Assembly: GCA_002840275.1 (NCBI GenBank)
Contig: PHAB01000002.1
Span: 1 to 64,000, forward strand
Direction of reading: 5' to 3'
DNA: 64,000 nt
DNA from: Firmicutes bacterium HGW-Firmicutes-14
GTDB lineage: Bacteria > Bacillota > Thermincolia > Thermincolales > UBA2595
Under the pieces are notes generated by a model that was not told the DNA's origin, ran no database searches, and saw only the letters and a program-made list of their open reading frames with translations. The position numbers and the translations under genes were made by a program. Within the stretch, counting starts at the first letter, position 1; every line of letters begins with the position of its first letter. Below are positions 2,463 to 23,099 of this stretch, piece after piece.

Positions 2463-2543
2463 TTTGAAGAAGGAATTTCCTGCCGGATGCAGATGTAATG
2501 TTACAGGCGATGGAGCCCGCCTTAACCGCTGCTTAGCTGATGG

Positions 2544-2580
2544 CTCCTACCAGGTCCGCTGGTAGGAGTTTCTTTATTTT
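2544..2580 (+). terminator. Terminator of the MCP gene
   Basis: A 9-bp perfect stem (2544-2552 with 2560-2568), a 7-nt loop and a T-rich tail through 2580. Confidence 0.9.
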
Positions 2581-3401: not shown

Positions 3402-4349
3402 ATGTCCTTTTCCGCTGATACAAAAAATGAGCTGGCCCGTATCATTGCCAGGAAGAAGTGCTGCCGGCTGGCCGAACTGGCTGCAATAATCAAAATGGAT
3501 GGGCTTATACAGATCGGCGGCAACCGTAAAATGTCCCTGCATCTCTTAACAGAAAGTGCTGCTGTGGCCAGGAAAGTAATTACGTACCTAAAGGAGCTTT
3601 TCTCAGTTCACACTGATATCCTGATGAGAAAAAAGACCAAATTGAAAAAGAATAATATATATACTGTCGTTCTGGCATCCCGGCCGGAGGTATCGGAGGT
3701 TCTGCGCTGTGTCGGGATGACAGGGAAAGAAGGGCGGCTTATCGAACATATCATCCCGGAGTTGATTAAACGTGATTGCTGCCGGAGGGCATACCTGCGC
3801 GGGGTATTTCTGGGCGGTGGGTCTGTCAGTGACCCTGAGGGAGATTACCACCTGGAAATTCTTGTCAATGATGAAGTTTTCAGCAGCGATTTGTGTAAAC
3901 TGCTGGAACAATATGACCTGAAGGCCAGAATAAACAAAAGGAAAAACTGGGATGTGGTGTACCTTAAGGGGAGCGAGGAAATTATTAAACTTCTGAACCT
4001 GATGGGAGCTCATAATGCCCTTCTTAATTTTGAAAATGTCCGTATATATAAAGATGTAAGGAACCAGGTTAACCGTCTCGTCAATTGTGAAACAGCTAAC
4101 CTTAATAAAACTGTCAATGCTGCGGTTAAGCAGGTGGAGGATATTAAGCTTATCCAAAAGATAATAGGATTGTCCGCGCTTCCGGCAAACCTCAGGGCGG
4201 TTGCGGAACTAAGGCTTAATTATCCTGATATCAGCCTCAAGGAAATGGGGGAAATGCTGGAACCGAGAATAGGGAAGTCGGGGGTAAACCACCGGATAAG
4301 AAGAATCCAGAGGATTGCAGATAAAGTTAGGGAAAAACAAAAGGTGTGA
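3402..4349 (+). CDS. whiA: DNA-binding protein WhiA
   Basis: WhiA is a conserved Gram-positive protein with a LAGLIDADG-homing-endonuclease-like N-domain and a C-terminal HTH. It influences cell division, and sporulation in actinomycetes. The start is ATG 3402 (MSFSADTKNELARI, the usual WhiA N-terminus) after GGGGAG; an upstream in-frame ATG at 3354 has no ribosome site. The 315 residues match the family length. The degenerate endonuclease signature AYLRGVFLGGGSVSD is near residue 129, and the HTH (DISLKEMGEMLEPRIGKSGV) is near 275. The usual neighbours rapZ and yvcK are absent; rpoN follows 10 nt downstream. Confidence 0.95.
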   Translation: MSFSADTKNELARIIARKKCCRLAELAAIIKMDGLIQIGGNRKMSLHLLTESAAVARKVITYLKELFSVHTDILMRKKTKLKKNNIYTVVLASRPEVSEVLRCVGMTGKEGRLIEHIIPELIKRDCCRRAYLRGVFLGGGSVSDPEGDYHLEILVNDEVFSSDLCKLLEQYDLKARINKRKNWDVVYLKGSEEIIKLLNLMGAHNALLNFENVRIYKDVRNQVNRLVNCETANLNKTVNAAVKQVEDIKLIQKIIGLSALPANLRAVAELRLNYPDISLKEMGEMLEPRIGKSGVNHRIRRIQRIADKVREKQKV

Positions 4350-4359
4350 GGTGGCTTTA

Positions 4360-5775
4360 ATGCGGTTGGGGTTCGGACTCTCCCAGGAACAGACTCAAAA
4401 ACTCATGATGACACCGGAACTGAGACTGGCGATTAAGATTCTCCAATTGTCAGCTATTGAACTGACGGAATATATAGAACAGGAACTTGTGGAAAACCCG
4501 GTTTTGGAAGTCGTTGAGGAAACTGCAGAGGAAGCTGAAGAGGGCGGAAATAATTCTGCCACTGAGGAAAAGACAAAAGATAAATCAGATGAAGGACCGG
4601 ATATTGACTGGGAAAAATACTTTGAGGATGAGAACGGCCGGGACAGCGGTTCACCTGTTAAGAACGACCGCGAATCGCCAAGGTATGACAATTTTGTGGC
4701 AGAGGTGCCAACTCTCAATGACCATCTTATGTTCCAGTTGTCTATGTCGAAGCTGAACAGAAAAGAAAGGACAGTAGGGGAATTTTTTATCGGAAACATT
4801 GATGATAACGGATACCTGCATTGTTCTGCTGATGAGGCAGCTATCCACTGCGGGGTTCCGTTTACAACCGCAGAAAAAGTCCTTAAGACCATACAGGGTT
4901 TCGACCCCCTGGGTGTAGGCGCCAAAGACCTCAGGGAATGCCTGTTAATTCAATATGAACACATGGGTTTAGGGAATGACCTTCTGAAAAAAATAATTGA
5001 CAGGTACCTTCAGGAAGTCGCCGAGGGCAAGATGATGAAAGTCGCTAAGAAACTGGGTGTTTCCCTGCAGGAGATGCAGGAAGCCATTGACAGCCTAAAA
5101 GAGCTTGAGCCAAAACCGGGCAGGAAATTCTCTCCCAATGACAGGACCCGGTATATTGTTCCCGACGTAGTGGTGGAAAAGATTGACGGCGAATATATAG
5201 TTCTGGTCAATGATGTGTCTATGCCCAGGCTGACAATCAATTCTGTTTACCGGGAAATGGTGAGGAGCAGCCTGCCTGACCATGAAGGCAAGAAATACCT
5301 GGAGGCTAAATTAAACTCGGCTGCATGGCTGATGAAAAGCATTGAACAGCGCCGGGAAACCCTGTACAAGGTGGCCAGGGCTATTGTCGATTTCCAGAAG
5401 GAATTTTTTTGCCAGGGGATCAAACACCTGAAGACAATGAACCTGAAGCAGGTCGCTGAAACCCTGGGTATCCATGAGTCGACGGTAAGCCGGGCAACCG
5501 CAGGCAAATACATGCAAACCCCCAGGGGCTTGTTTGAGATGAAATTCTTCTTCTCCAGCGGGGTTTCAAATGACCACGGGTCATCAACTTCTTCGGAAGC
5601 CGTGAAAAAGATTATTAAAGAACTTATTGCTGAAGAAGATACCGCAAAACCCCTTAGTGACCAGAAGATAGCAGAAAAGCTTAAAGCCAGGGGTGTGGAC
5701 ATATCCAGGCGGACTGTGGCCAAGTACCGTGATGAGATTGGGATACTTCCCACATCCAGAAGGAGAAGGTATTAG
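4360..5775 (+). CDS. rpoN: RNA polymerase sigma-54 factor
   Basis: Alternative sigma factor for -24/-12 promoters, dependent on AAA+ activators. The start is ATG 4360 after GTGAGGTGG (471 residues). It has the Gln/Leu-rich activator region I (LSQEQTQKLMMTPELRLAIK), an acidic linker (about 55-110), the core-binding domain, an HTH near 360 (LKQVAETLGIHESTVSRAT) and the RpoN box near 450 (SRRTVAKYRDEIGI). No activator gene lies in this window and no clear -24/-12 promoter was spotted. It follows whiA after 10 nt and so is probably cotranscribed with it. Confidence 0.97.
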   Translation: MRLGFGLSQEQTQKLMMTPELRLAIKILQLSAIELTEYIEQELVENPVLEVVEETAEEAEEGGNNSATEEKTKDKSDEGPDIDWEKYFEDENGRDSGSPVKNDRESPRYDNFVAEVPTLNDHLMFQLSMSKLNRKERTVGEFFIGNIDDNGYLHCSADEAAIHCGVPFTTAEKVLKTIQGFDPLGVGAKDLRECLLIQYEHMGLGNDLLKKIIDRYLQEVAEGKMMKVAKKLGVSLQEMQEAIDSLKELEPKPGRKFSPNDRTRYIVPDVVVEKIDGEYIVLVNDVSMPRLTINSVYREMVRSSLPDHEGKKYLEAKLNSAAWLMKSIEQRRETLYKVARAIVDFQKEFFCQGIKHLKTMNLKQVAETLGIHESTVSRATAGKYMQTPRGLFEMKFFFSSGVSNDHGSSTSSEAVKKIIKELIAEEDTAKPLSDQKIAEKLKARGVDISRRTVAKYRDEIGILPTSRRRRY

Positions 5776-5918: not shown

Positions 5919-5955
5919 ATAAAATGGCCAACGGAAGGAAGCGTGAGGTTCGGTA

Positions 5956-11656: not shown

Positions 11657-12961
<1,305 letters not shown>

Positions 12962-20349: not shown

Positions 20350-20390
20350 ACCCTCTTGACATGGCAAAAAGTGCGCTGTTCCAAGAGGGT
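20350..20390 (+). promoter_or_regulatory. Hairpin in the smpB leader
   Basis: ACCCTCTTG (20350-20358) pairs perfectly with CAAGAGGGT (20382-20390), with a 23-nt loop and no T-run afterwards. It lies in the leader between the promoter and the smpB start. Its role is unknown; it could be an mRNA stability or attenuation element. Confidence 0.45.
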
Positions 20391-20428
20391 TGACTTTCCC
20401 CAAAATCAGACTGAGGGATATGATTTTA

Positions 20429-20896
20429 ATGGCTGAAAATATTAAAACAATAACCGAAAACCGTAAGGCCCGTCATGACTACCATATCGAAGAAACCTTC
20501 GAGGCAGGTATTGTTCTGGCCGGGACAGAGGTTAAATCCCTCAGGGCAGGGAGGGCCAATCTTAAGGACAGTTTTGCCAGGGTTGATCATGGGGAAATAT
20601 TCCTTTATAATGCCCATATAAGCCCCTATGACCAGGGCAACAGGTTCAATCATGACCCTCTCAGGACCAGGAAGCTTCTGATGCATAAACATGAGATACG
20701 TAAACTGATTGGCCGGGTCCATGAGAAGGGGCTGACCCTGGTCCCGCTTAAAATGTATTTCAAAAACGGAAAGGCTAAGGTCCAGCTGGCCCTGGCCAAA
20801 GGGAAAAAGCTCTATGACAAGCGTGACGACATGGCTGCCCGGGATGCCAAAAGGGAGATGGAAAAGGCTTTTCGGGAGAGGCAGAAAGACAATTGA
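20429..20896 (+). CDS. smpB: SsrA-binding protein SmpB
   Basis: Binds the tRNA-like domain of tmRNA and places it in the empty A site of stalled ribosomes. Starts at ATG 20429 ([20 protein letters not shown]) 10 nt after GAGGGA; an ATG at 20420 abuts that site. 155 residues with the OB-fold signatures [21 protein letters not shown] and [18 protein letters not shown], plus the basic C-terminal tail [20 protein letters not shown]. Its stop codon overlaps an 18-bp palindrome, and ssrA begins 20 nt later, next to its RNA partner. Confidence 0.97.
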
Positions 20897-20916: not shown

Positions 20917-21524
20917 GGGGGTGTACTGGTTTCGACGGGGGAAGAATGAACACAAGCAGCGAGCCGGGGTCCCACAAGCCCGTTAATACGGTGGAACTTA
21001 AATTAAACAACAACGAAAATTACGCTTTAGCAGCTTAATTGCTGCCTAACCTCTCTGCTTCTGTGCTCTGTGTGAAGTGGATGAGGTCATTTAACAGAGC
21101 TGGCCGATCCCCAATTCTCGGAGGGGTGAGGCGAGATTTATCGAGATAGTGACGTGTAAGCCTGCCGGTGGGCGTGCATTGAGCGAAATCTAAATCACCA
21201 GGCTGCGCTCGGAGAAGCTTGTGTGGGTTCTCCTTCGGACAGGGGTTCGATCAATGGTCGCCCTATCCAGTGATGGATAGGTGATAACCCGGCTTTATCG
21301 GTGAAGGCTCAGCACGTGAAGGTGGTGCTAATACCGAGTGGTATGTGGGGAAACCCAACAGCCGTGTATCGACTCATAGGCTGCCAATTGGGTGGTACTA
21401 GGATGCGGGTGGCAATGAATACAGGAACCTGCATAATACGCCGGGGGACTTGGGAAAAACCAAGTTCAAGATATAGTCAGCGCTTATGTGAAAACATAAG
21501 ATAAGCGTCCCCTCACCTCCACCA
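20917..21524 (+). ncRNA. ssrA: tmRNA, interrupted by a group I intron in its T-loop
   Basis: Rescues stalled ribosomes together with SmpB. The 5' end GGGGGTG (20917-20923) pairs with CACCTCC near the 3' end; the 3' CCA is encoded at 21522-21524. The diagnostic GTACTGGTTTCGACGGGG follows the 5' end. The tag frame around 21000-21038 encodes KLNNNENYALAA then TAA; the resume codon is probably AAC at about 21009. The T-arm reads AGGGG-TTCGAT up to 21251, then is broken by 256 nt (21252-21507), and resumes as T-CCCCT. Removing that insert restores a normal T-stem/loop and leaves a 352-nt tmRNA, the usual size. This is the intact, presumably working copy. Confidence 0.95.
21252..21507 (+). mobile_element. 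Group I self-splicing intron in the tmRNA T-loop (no ORF)
   Basis: It starts after the U of TTCGAT and ends in G before TCCCCT. CGAUC-AAU-GGUCG gives a P1 helix with a U-G pair at the 5' splice site, and the last nucleotide is the omega-G. P2 hairpin CCTATCC/GGATAGG (21262-21281). AAGATATAGTC at 21468-21478 is the typical conserved 3' strand of P7. A GAAA-capped helix CTTATGT/ACATAAG lies near the end. At 256 nt it has no endonuclease gene. Group I introns in tmRNA genes have, to my recollection, been reported before but are rare. Confidence 0.9.
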
Positions 21525-21999
21525 AATTTAACGCGAAACACATTTCGCGATGTGATACTGGAAGCATAAGTTTGCCGTCTTGGCAAACTTATGCTTCCGG
21601 TTTTATGTGGCAAACTTATGGTTCCATTTTCTTATTTCTAAAATGAAGGCCTTAGCTTATTTTAAGTCGAATTGTGCTAGTGTTTGGGGACTAAACTACA
21701 ATACCTTGGTTTTTGTAAACTGCAATATTCGGGTGTGTTTTTTGTTTTATGAAGATTGGCGAACCCCTTGGCAGGTGGGGTATTAAGGTATCACCAAAGA
21801 ATTGCATCAAACATCCTTAAAGCCTCAAGAAAGTGTCCCATTGAGATTTTTCCCTAAAACAGGAGCTACGGAAAAGAGGTTAACATAGTATGCATCATAA
21901 GTCCTGGTATGCGAGATGATGTTATGTTAACAATGTTATGAATTGCCCTGAGTATTTTTAGTAAGTTTATCGGAAGCGAGACATCTGGAGGTGTAGGAT
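21525..21999. other. AT-rich spacer between tmRNA and the kinase-like gene
   Basis: No convincing gene was found. It contains a 6-bp hairpin GCGAAA/TTTCGC (21532-21549), a 17-bp terminator hairpin (21560-21598), a partial repeat of its 3' arm (21607-21623) and an inverted repeat GTTAACATA/TATGTTAAC (21879-21887, 21923-21931) with an inner CATCAT/ATGATG match. The composition differs from the flanking core genes, as expected of acquired DNA. No integrase fragment could be recognised. Confidence 0.6.
21560..21604 (+). terminator. Strong hairpin downstream of tmRNA copy 1
   Basis: A perfect 17-bp stem (21560-21576 with 21582-21598), a 5-nt loop, then GGTTTT. It probably ends the tmRNA precursor. 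Confidence 0.8.
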
Positions 22000-22557
22000 G
22001 TGGTTGAGAACCAGGAGTACAGCGTAACTTTAGATAAATTGGACAGTTATCCTGTATTGGGAAAAGGGGCTTACGGAAAAGTTTATAAACTAGATGAAGG
22101 AACCTGTGTGAAGGTTAACAAAGACATCAAGATTAACAAAAACGAAGTAGAGTTATATAAAAAATACAAGAACTGTCCATTATTTCCAAAGTTTTATGGC
22201 TGCGGTGAAAACTATATTGTCATGGAACTAATTAAAGGGGAATCTTTAGAAAGCTATTTAACTAAAGGAAAGTCTCTAGACAAGAATATATTACAATTGT
22301 TAGTGAAAATGTTTGAAGAAGGGAAAAAGGCGGGTTTACGCCTCAATCCCTATATCAGACATATTATTTTAACTCCTGAAAATTGTATAAAATTAGTCGA
22401 CATTAAAAGCACTATCAGACATAGCAAAAATAAATTAGCATCCGGAAAATCAATTTTATTTCTAAAGGGATTGAATGAATACGGACAAAAACAAGTTTTT
22501 CTGGAATATGTAAAAAACAATCATGAGTGGCTAATTAATCAATGGAACAACGTCTAG
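22000..22557 (+). CDS. Degenerate protein-kinase-like protein, orphan
   Basis: 185 residues from GTG 22000 after CTGGAGGTG. The N-terminal half resembles a small eukaryotic-type protein kinase: glycine loop LGKGAYGKVYKL (about 20-31), VAIK-like CVKV, and hinge VMELIKGESLESYL (about 73-86). The catalytic parts are degenerate: the HRD region is LNPYIRHIIL, and DFG is replaced by LVDIKS. It is short for a kinase, so a pseudokinase or a YrzF-like protein is likely. It is AT-rich and lies alone between two tmRNA copies; its stop codon is 4 nt before homology to tmRNA resumes. Function unknown. Confidence 0.7.
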   Translation: MVENQEYSVTLDKLDSYPVLGKGAYGKVYKLDEGTCVKVNKDIKINKNEVELYKKYKNCPLFPKFYGCGENYIVMELIKGESLESYLTKGKSLDKNILQLLVKMFEEGKKAGLRLNPYIRHIILTPENCIKLVDIKSTIRHSKNKLASGKSILFLKGLNEYGQKQVFLEYVKNNHEWLINQWNNV

Positions 22558-22561
22558 GTCA

Positions 22562-22883
22562 AAATTAAACGCTAATAACGATTACGCTTTAGCAGCTTGT
22601 GTGGGTTCTCTTCCGGACAGGGGTTCGATCAATGGTCGCCCTATCGAGTGATGGGTAGGTGAGAAGGCTCAGCAAGTAAAGGTGGTGCTAATACCGAGTG
22701 GTATGTGGGAAAACCCAACAGCCGTATATCGACTCATAGGCCGCCAATTGGGTGGTACTAGGATGCGGGTGGCAATAAAACAGGAACCTGCATAATACGC
22801 CGGGGGACTTGGGAAAAACCAAGTTCAAGATATAGTCAGCGCTTATGTGAAAACATAAGATAAGCGTCTCCTCACCTCCACCA
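22562..22883 (+). pseudogene. Second, deleted tmRNA copy with group I intron
   Basis: Homology to ssrA starts at the tag region AAATTAAAC and encodes KLNANNDYALAA. The tag end AGCTT is fused directly to GTGTGGGTTCTC, which in the intact gene lies about 180 nt further on. Then come GGACAGGGGTTCGAT, a 237-nt intron (22630-22866), TCTCCTCACCTCCACCA and a terminator. The 5' half of the tRNA-like domain, PK1, the tag stop codon and PK2-PK4 are missing, so it cannot work as a normal tmRNA. The deletion ends share AGCTT, which suggests microhomology recombination. The different tag suggests a diverged source rather than a recent duplication. Confidence 0.85.
22630..22866 (+). mobile_element. Group I intron in the tmRNA relic
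   Basis: It sits at exactly the same T-loop site as the first intron and is nearly identical, with the same start (CAATGGTCG), the same AAGATATAGTC core (22827-22837) and the same GAAA-capped helix. The P2 arm differs by changes that keep pairing (GGGTAGG against CCTATC). About 20 nt after P2 is missing between short GGTGA repeats. The downstream exon changes CCCCT to CTCCT, which still pairs through one G-U. Confidence 0.88.
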
Positions 22884-22892
22884 AAAAATGAT

Positions 22893-22920
22893 CCCGGGGT
22901 TTAAAAGCCCCGGGTTTTTG
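22893..22920 (+). terminator. Terminator after the tmRNA relic
   Basis: A 7-bp GC-only stem CCCGGGG/CCCCGGG (22893-22899, 22908-22914) followed by TTTTT. It lies 9 nt after the CCA and is probably the terminator of the ancestral tmRNA gene. Confidence 0.92.
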
Positions 22921-23099
22921 TTTGGTTTTTAAAAATCTCAAATTTTAGCATGCAAATAGAAGGGAATAGAAAAAATTGGCAGAAGAATTATTATATGGCT
23001 TAAATAGTCTGCACTAAACCTGGTGAAGTCAAATCCATCAAAATATGGGGACGCAAAACCAAGGTATAGCAGCAAAATAAATAAAGGGAGGTTTTTAGT

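What the first reader, a model, noticed from the sequence alone, without database searches (positions are those of the whole stretch)
20917..22920. Island bounded by two intron-bearing tmRNA copies
Intact ssrA, 1 kb of AT-rich DNA with a kinase-like gene, and a second 3' tmRNA copy with the same intron and a terminator form a structure like an integrative element at tmRNA, a common island target. The repeat includes the intron itself, so the att sequence would be inside or across the intron. No integrase remains. Either the element was reduced to one cargo gene, or a diverged ssrA was captured.
Basis: partly seen in the sequence, partly recalled or inferred. Interest (0 to 1): 0.82.

Follow-up and report, generated by a model that had tools for sequence, protein, structure and literature searches.

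The report
Single-gene insertion at tmRNA gene
A bacterial ribosome-rescue RNA gene (ssrA, interrupted by a self-splicing-type intron) has had a single foreign gene inserted behind it, with the old 3' part of the RNA gene, intron included, pushed downstream; relatives carry whole strings of such one-gene insertions at the same spot, which points to an unusual gene-collecting site that no recombinase gene nearby explains.

Summary
20917-21524 is an intact ssrA with a group I intron (21252-21507) in the T-loop. A 35% GC stretch with one kinase-like ORF (22000-22557) follows. Then comes a damaged second ssrA 3' part (22562-22883) with the same intron, and a terminator. The island reading is largely right but needs three corrections. 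(1) The displaced copy starts in the tag codons, not in the intron. (2) Its tag (ANNDYALAA) is the relatives' tag, while the working gene now has NNENYALAA, so copy 2 looks like the old native end. (3) It is not isolated. In Thermincolaceae relatives the same spot holds ssrA fragments in tandem, separated mostly by single genes: G002 (nine or more), G008, G007, G001. G007 is the pre-insertion state of one G008 unit. Of 16 fragments, 10 start -2 to +15 nt from an upstream gene's stop codon (about 2e-9 by a simple null). Nine start near the tag/helix-5 hairpin and four in the T-arm. No tyrosine or serine recombinase lies at these sites. In G002 the two introns are identical (241/241) while exons match 127/162, so the intron moved between copies. 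Best reading: a one-gene unit of an ssrA-targeted insertion array with a new boundary region; the enzyme is unknown.

The parts
20390..20896 (+). smpB, partner gene of tmRNA (fixed upstream anchor)
   Evidence: PF01668 E 2e-66
20917..21251 (+). ssrA 5' exon (tRNA-like 5' end, tag NNENYALAA with TAA stop, pseudoknots, T-arm to GGGGTTCGAT)
   Evidence: RF00023 match; borders from sequence
21021..21046 (+). tag end plus helix-5 hairpin TACGCTTTAGCAGCTTAATTGCTGCC, region where most displaced fragments in relatives begin
21252..21507 (+). group I intron of copy 1, T-loop position 7, U at -1 and terminal G
   Evidence: RF00028 E 2.3e-8; splice rule from PMC11915505
21508..21524 (+). ssrA 3' exon TCCCCTCACCTCCACCA
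   Evidence: splicing restores a standard T-arm and acceptor stem
21557..21601 (+). terminator hairpin of copy 1; nearly the same hairpin lies behind ssrA in G004 and inside the G002 array
22000..22557 (+). cargo gene, 185 aa, protein-kinase-like N-lobe without a clear HxD motif; paralogue elsewhere in the genome (C39, 64%)
22562..22598 (+). start of displaced ssrA copy: tag region with the relatives' tag ANNDYALAA up to the end of GCAGCTT
22599..22629 (+). rest of copy 2 5' exon, joined to the tag by an internal deletion (most of tag stop to PK4 lost)
22630..22866 (+). group I intron of copy 2, 229/237 aligned positions identical to copy 1, 18-nt deletion in P3/P4, probably dead
22867..22883 (+). 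copy 2 3' exon TCTCCTCACCTCCACCA
22893..22922 (+). terminator behind copy 2, probably the original ssrA terminator and now available to the cargo gene
   Evidence: position

Best explanation
21525-22561 is one unit of an ssrA-targeted insertion array. A DNA unit made of an ssrA 3' part (tag to terminator) followed by one gene recombined with the host's intron-bearing ssrA near the tag codons. The host 5' part plus the incoming 3' part make the working ssrA. The incoming gene sits behind it. The host's old 3' part, with the relatives' tag, the intron and the original terminator, was pushed downstream, where it decays. The same has happened repeatedly in relatives with other genes, at two preferred stretches of ssrA (tag/helix 5 and T-arm). 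The units carry no recombinase, so they were moved by one acting in trans or since lost. The intron spreads between neighbouring ssrA copies independently, by homing or conversion. Shown: anatomy, arrays in relatives, presence/absence of a unit, absence of recombinase genes, intron transfer in G002. Inferred: order of events in the window, site-specific enzyme, trans action.
For: Copy 2 carries the tag of G004/G007/G008 while copy 1 differs. Fragments downstream of ssrA in G002 (nine or more), G008 (2), G007 (2), G001 (1). G007 ssrA-to-FAD gene aligns at 92.5% with G008 fragment-to-FAD gene, with the multicopper-oxidase unit absent in G007. 10/16 fragments start -2 to +15 nt from a co-directional stop codon; null 5.6%, binomial 2e-9. 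Starts cluster at ssrA 84-108 (9/16) and 313-332 (4/16). G004 and G007 ssrA are nearly identical until the T-arm, then differ there and downstream. Repeated helix-5 matches on one contig only in this family; none of the other Bacillota genomes with a match has two on one contig. No PF00589 or PF00239 hit at these sites. G002 intron 241/241 vs exon 127/162, Fisher 1e-15.
Against: Fragment starts are not one fixed crossover (also 54, 152, about 241; in BICA1-7 about 18). No circular form, no attP and no enzyme was found. No same-genus genome without the kinase unit is held, so the window's own empty site is unseen. In the window alone exon and intron divergence outside the tag are similar (45/48 vs 229/237), so intron movement there is not proved. 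G004 shows no displaced fragment behind its unit. Fragment starts of decayed copies are approximate, and the null for stop-codon spacing ignores shared ancestry among units.
Confidence: 0.62

Rival explanations
1. Homologous or homology-assisted uptake: DNA from a related cell carrying its ssrA and the gene behind it recombined in ssrA at one end and joined by chance at the other, leaving a truncated native 3' part. No site-specific enzyme is needed; arrays then spread by ordinary recombination between ssrA repeats.
For: Variable fragment starts; no recombinase at the sites; the FAD-gene unit is 92.5% identical between G007 and G008 against about 81% for the neighbouring core genes, so units spread by transfer between lineages.
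Against: Chance joins would not cluster at two ssrA stretches nor fall -2 to +15 nt from a stop codon in 10 of 16 cases.
Confidence: 0.2
2. Conventional integrase-bearing islands (as in Dehalococcoides or Islander sets) integrated in ssrA and later shrank to one gene each.
For: Tandem ssrA islands, only some of which keep the integration module, are documented (PMC3146451); T-arm type fragments in G002 and G007 fit.
Against: The least decayed units (G008 fragment 2, window, G002 HEG unit) already hold one gene ending 1-4 nt from the fragment; no integrase remnant in any unit examined; a tag/helix-5 start is not a site described in the papers read.
Confidence: 0.22
3. Simple old tandem duplication of an intron-bearing ssrA, with the kinase gene arriving later.
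For: Copies adjacent and co-oriented; downstream of the tag exon and intron divergence are alike in the window.
Against: Copy 2 tag matches other genera rather than copy 1; copy 2 has no 5' half although that is the best conserved part; relatives have several independent units.
Confidence: 0.1
4. Functional second RNA: copy 2 is kept as a processed RNA or as terminator for the kinase gene.
For: Terminator intact; intron and 3' exon well kept.
Against: No 5' half, so no tRNA-like fold; pseudoknots lost; P3/P4 of the intron deleted. Use as the cargo gene's terminator remains possible and does not conflict with the main reading.
Confidence: 0.08

Closest known systems
Dehalococcoides ssrA-specific genomic islands (PMC3146451)
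   Same: Serial insertions behind ssrA, each leaving an ssrA 3' repeat on the same strand; many units without an integration module; variable cargo.
   Different: There the repeat is 20 bp starting in the T-loop and serine recombinases DsiB/DsiA are linked. Here most fragments start in the tag/helix 5 (about 250 nt if undeleted), units carry mostly one gene, and no recombinase is linked.
tRNA/tmRNA-targeted integrative islands as defined by Islander (PMC4383910)
   Same: Intact gene plus displaced same-strand 3' fragment.
   Different: No integrase, units about 0.8-2.2 kb (Islander requires an integrase and at least 2 kb), boundary outside the anticodon, T-loop and T/acceptor sub-sites it lists.
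Group I introns at T-loop position 7 of ssrA (PMC11915505)
   Same: Position, U before and G at the end of the intron, length 256 nt, Bacillota host.
   Different: Here two tandem copies hold the intron, and in G002 a free-standing LAGLIDADG gene lies between two identical introns.
Integron gene cassette arrays (own knowledge)
   Same: Mostly one gene per unit, each gene closely followed by a shared recombination-type sequence, mostly same orientation, enzyme not in the units.
   Different: The shared sequence is a piece of a host RNA gene with variable start, not attC; no integron integrase was shown.

Membership tests
tmRNA-targeted integrative island | intact ssrA followed by displaced same-strand 3' fragment | tested here: met
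tmRNA-targeted integrative island | integrase gene in or overlapping the unit | tested here: not met
   no PF00589 on contig C37 and no PF00239 in the genome
tmRNA-targeted integrative island | empty site in relatives | tested here: inconclusive
   G004, G007, G008 lack the kinase unit but carry others and belong to another genus; G007 is the empty state for a G008 unit
tmRNA-targeted integrative island | crossover at T-loop or T/acceptor junction | tested here: not met
   similarity of the displaced copy starts at the tag, 22562; T-arm type seen in relatives only
Dehalococcoides-type ssrA island | linked DsiB/DsiA serine recombinases | tested here: not met
Dehalococcoides-type ssrA island | tandem units each ending in an ssrA 3' repeat | tested here: met
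   one unit in the window, several in G002 and G008
ssrA T-loop group I intron | T-loop position 7, U at -1, terminal G, restored T-arm | tested here: met
   sequence, rule
ssrA T-loop group I intron | self-splicing | not testable with these tools
   needs in vitro transcription; copy 2 lacks the P3 5' strand
integron cassette array | integron integrase and attC structure | not tested
   tyrosine recombinases exist elsewhere in these genomes but were not classified

The most novel reading that the evidence does not exclude
A cassette system that uses the tmRNA gene as its docking site. Single genes, each closely followed by a piece of ssrA as recombination site, are added one at a time behind ssrA by a recombinase encoded elsewhere, so that each event also swaps the degradation tag and the 3' half of the tmRNA. 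The arrays would be analogous to integron arrays but built on a host RNA gene.
Probability: 0.2. Interest if true: 0.85.

Novelty: new variant of a known kind. Interest (0 to 1): 0.6.

Why it matters
ssrA is a favourite insertion target, but the described sub-sites are in the T-arm. If insertion near the tag is real, mobile units can rewrite the proteolysis tag and the 3' half of tmRNA in one step; that would be a new source of tmRNA variation. Serial single-gene units without a linked enzyme raise the question of what assembles and moves one-gene cassettes, long debated for integrons. Identical introns in diverged tandem ssrA copies with a homing-endonuclease gene between them make intron movement at the insertion target directly testable.

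Tried and rejected
Att site inside or across the intron: rejected, most fragments lack the intron. Phage or plasmid source: no useful ssrA 3' match in phage or plasmid records, no kinase match in phages. Seven IMG/VR hits to the helix-5 pattern are permuted phage tmRNA genes, unrelated. The hairpin GGCAAACTTATGCTTCC as integrase arm sites: rejected, it is a terminator. G002 motif GGTATTCGATTA: terminator copies. First phylum pattern scan had a spacing error and is void, repeated correctly. RF00023 scan of 398 genomes uninformative because tRNAs also score. First nhmmer survey failed technically, redone. Apparent T-loop repeats in L069 and L078 were not reproduced with their own ssrA and may be tRNA genes; not used. 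AlphaFold model of the kinase-like protein is unusable (mean pLDDT 43), so no fold search was run. ssrA 5' vs 3' divergence as mosaic proof: weak, since the 3' half evolves faster anyway; only the G004/G007 T-arm switch and the tag switch are used.

Full report
What is there. The window lies on contig C37 of a 3.65-Mb Bacillota genome whose family relatives include MAGs deposited as Thermincola ferriacetica. After rnr and smpB comes ssrA, 20917-21524 (RF00023). ARAGORN misses it, probably because a 256-nt group I intron, 21252-21507, sits in the T-loop between GGGGTTCGAT and TCCCC. Joining the exons restores a standard T-arm, and the intron has U before it and ends in G, the rule for the main ssrA intron site, position 7 (PMC11915505). 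The Rfam intron match is significant (E 2e-8) though below the curated score.

Behind it lie 1037 bases of 35% GC (window 47%) with one clear gene, 22000-22557. Its product resembles a protein-kinase N-lobe (Pkinase E 0.004 and 0.0006 for a paralogue; weak kinase hits among solved structures). No clear HxD catalytic motif is visible in the alignment. A paralogue lies elsewhere in the genome and homologues lie in G004 and G008 away from ssrA. Four bases after its stop begins a second ssrA piece, 22562-22883: 37 nt of tag region, then a jump to the end of the 5' exon, the intron and the 3' exon, followed by a terminator. Pseudoknots 2-4 are mostly gone, and the intron lacks 18 nt covering the P3 5' strand, so this copy is dead as tmRNA and probably as ribozyme.

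Which copy is old? The tag in copy 2 encodes ANNDYALAA, the tag of G007 and G008 as called by ARAGORN and of G004 by sequence. The working gene encodes NNENYALAA. Copy 2 has no trace of the ssrA 5' half, the best conserved part. So copy 2 looks like the former 3' part of the native gene, and the tag now in use came with the insertion or changed since.

Relatives. G002 (contig C60, JAENZX010000008) has ssrA with intron at 4152-4743, followed by ssrA fragments near 5927, 6534, 8817, 9735, 12006, 12864, 14852, 20645, 21187 and 22328. Between the first ones lie mostly single genes: a LAGLIDADG endonuclease, a decayed membrane-protein gene, an AMP-binding enzyme, a 194-aa protein, a GAF-GGDEF protein and a histidine kinase; one unit (12072-12864) shows no gene of 80 aa or more. 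G008 has a multicopper oxidase, an ssrA fragment, an FAD gene and a membrane-protein gene, and another fragment. G007 has the FAD gene directly behind ssrA. The G007 stretch from ssrA helix 5 through the FAD gene aligns at 92.5% with the G008 stretch from fragment 2 through the FAD gene, and the sequence just behind both is the same. G007 therefore shows the state without the [ssrA 3' part + multicopper oxidase] unit. G001 has a three-gene unit (XRE regulator, IrrE-like, third gene) ending one base before an ssrA fragment; G004 has an XRE-IrrE unit with a third gene behind ssrA but no visible displaced fragment.

Regularities. Of 16 fragments in the window and four relatives, ten start -2 to +15 nt from the stop codon of a co-directional gene. 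A random intergenic position lies within 20 nt after such a stop in 5.6% of cases, binomial 2e-9. This null ignores shared descent among units, and starts of decayed copies are approximate. Nine fragments start at ssrA positions 84-108 (tag to helix 5), four at about 313-332 (T-arm), three elsewhere. The helix-5 pattern occurs in 30 of 398 Bacillota genomes; two or more matches on one contig occur only in G002 and G008. Among 72 ssrA loci found by SmpB (49 with over 3 kb downstream), only the Thermincola loci and L080 (Peptococcaceae BICA1-7, near-full second copy starting about 48 nt after a stop) have further long ssrA copies.

No enzyme. Tyrosine recombinases occur in all these genomes but none at the ssrA sites. 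Serine recombinases are absent from the window's genome and from the array contigs of G002, G008 and G004.

The intron. In G002 the introns of copies 1 and 2 are identical over 241 nt, whereas the exons match at 127 of 162 positions (Fisher 1e-15). The identical stretch extends only about 12 nt into either exon. The intron was therefore moved or converted recently between copies, and a free-standing LAGLIDADG gene, found only in G002 among 101 genomes, lies between them. In the window the introns match at 229/237 and exon parts at 75/85 (p 0.01), but that difference comes from the tag, so intron movement there is possible, not shown.

How it most likely works. A unit with an ssrA 3' part and one gene recombines with ssrA near the tag or in the T-arm, rebuilds ssrA and displaces the old end. 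Repeats build an array with the newest unit next to ssrA. A recombinase in trans or since lost is inferred. Rivals are homology-assisted uptake, shrunken conventional islands, and tandem duplication. The tandem arrangement and units without integration modules are known from Dehalococcoides. The tag/helix-5 boundary and the one-gene units were not found in the papers read or in the searches made, in a limited library that lacks most subscription journals.

Verdict. The att-in-intron idea is not supported. I rate it a new variant of tmRNA-gene-targeted insertion, with an unproved but testable cassette-like reading.

Noticed in passing
window 21000-21038; L041 4240-4275: The working tmRNA tags begin with unusual residues (NNENYALAA in the window, IDNDLAYAA in G002) where relatives have ANNDYALAA or AEENYALAA.
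   Followed up: partly
window 2497-2556: Fluoride riboswitch (RF01734, 59 bits).
   Followed up: no
L041 4838-5923: Free-standing two-domain LAGLIDADG endonuclease gene with a zinc-finger-like start, between two ssrA copies with identical introns.
   Followed up: partly
L041 5960-6550, L137 2795-4363: A membrane-protein gene on the minus strand (89% identical over 72 aa to a decayed copy) recurs in the G002 array, each time before an ssrA helix-5 fragment; a third gene-less copy of its flanks lies between.
   Followed up: partly
L046 10143-10482: Genome G009 has a second, diverged ssrA-like copy without a recognisable tag on another contig, in a transposase-like neighbourhood.
   Followed up: no
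L080 18168-18545 and 19277-19341: Peptococcaceae bacterium BICA1-7: near-full second ssrA copy and a third remnant with a hairpin in place of its middle, 8-9 kb behind the working gene.
   Followed up: partly
L141-L147: Viral contigs with circularly permuted tmRNA genes inside or near tRNA clusters, tags such as ANDQVYALAA.
   Followed up: no
G012 C3 and C9, G405 C2 and C16: Two genomes of one genus carry two tmRNA helix-5 sequences on different contigs.
   Followed up: no
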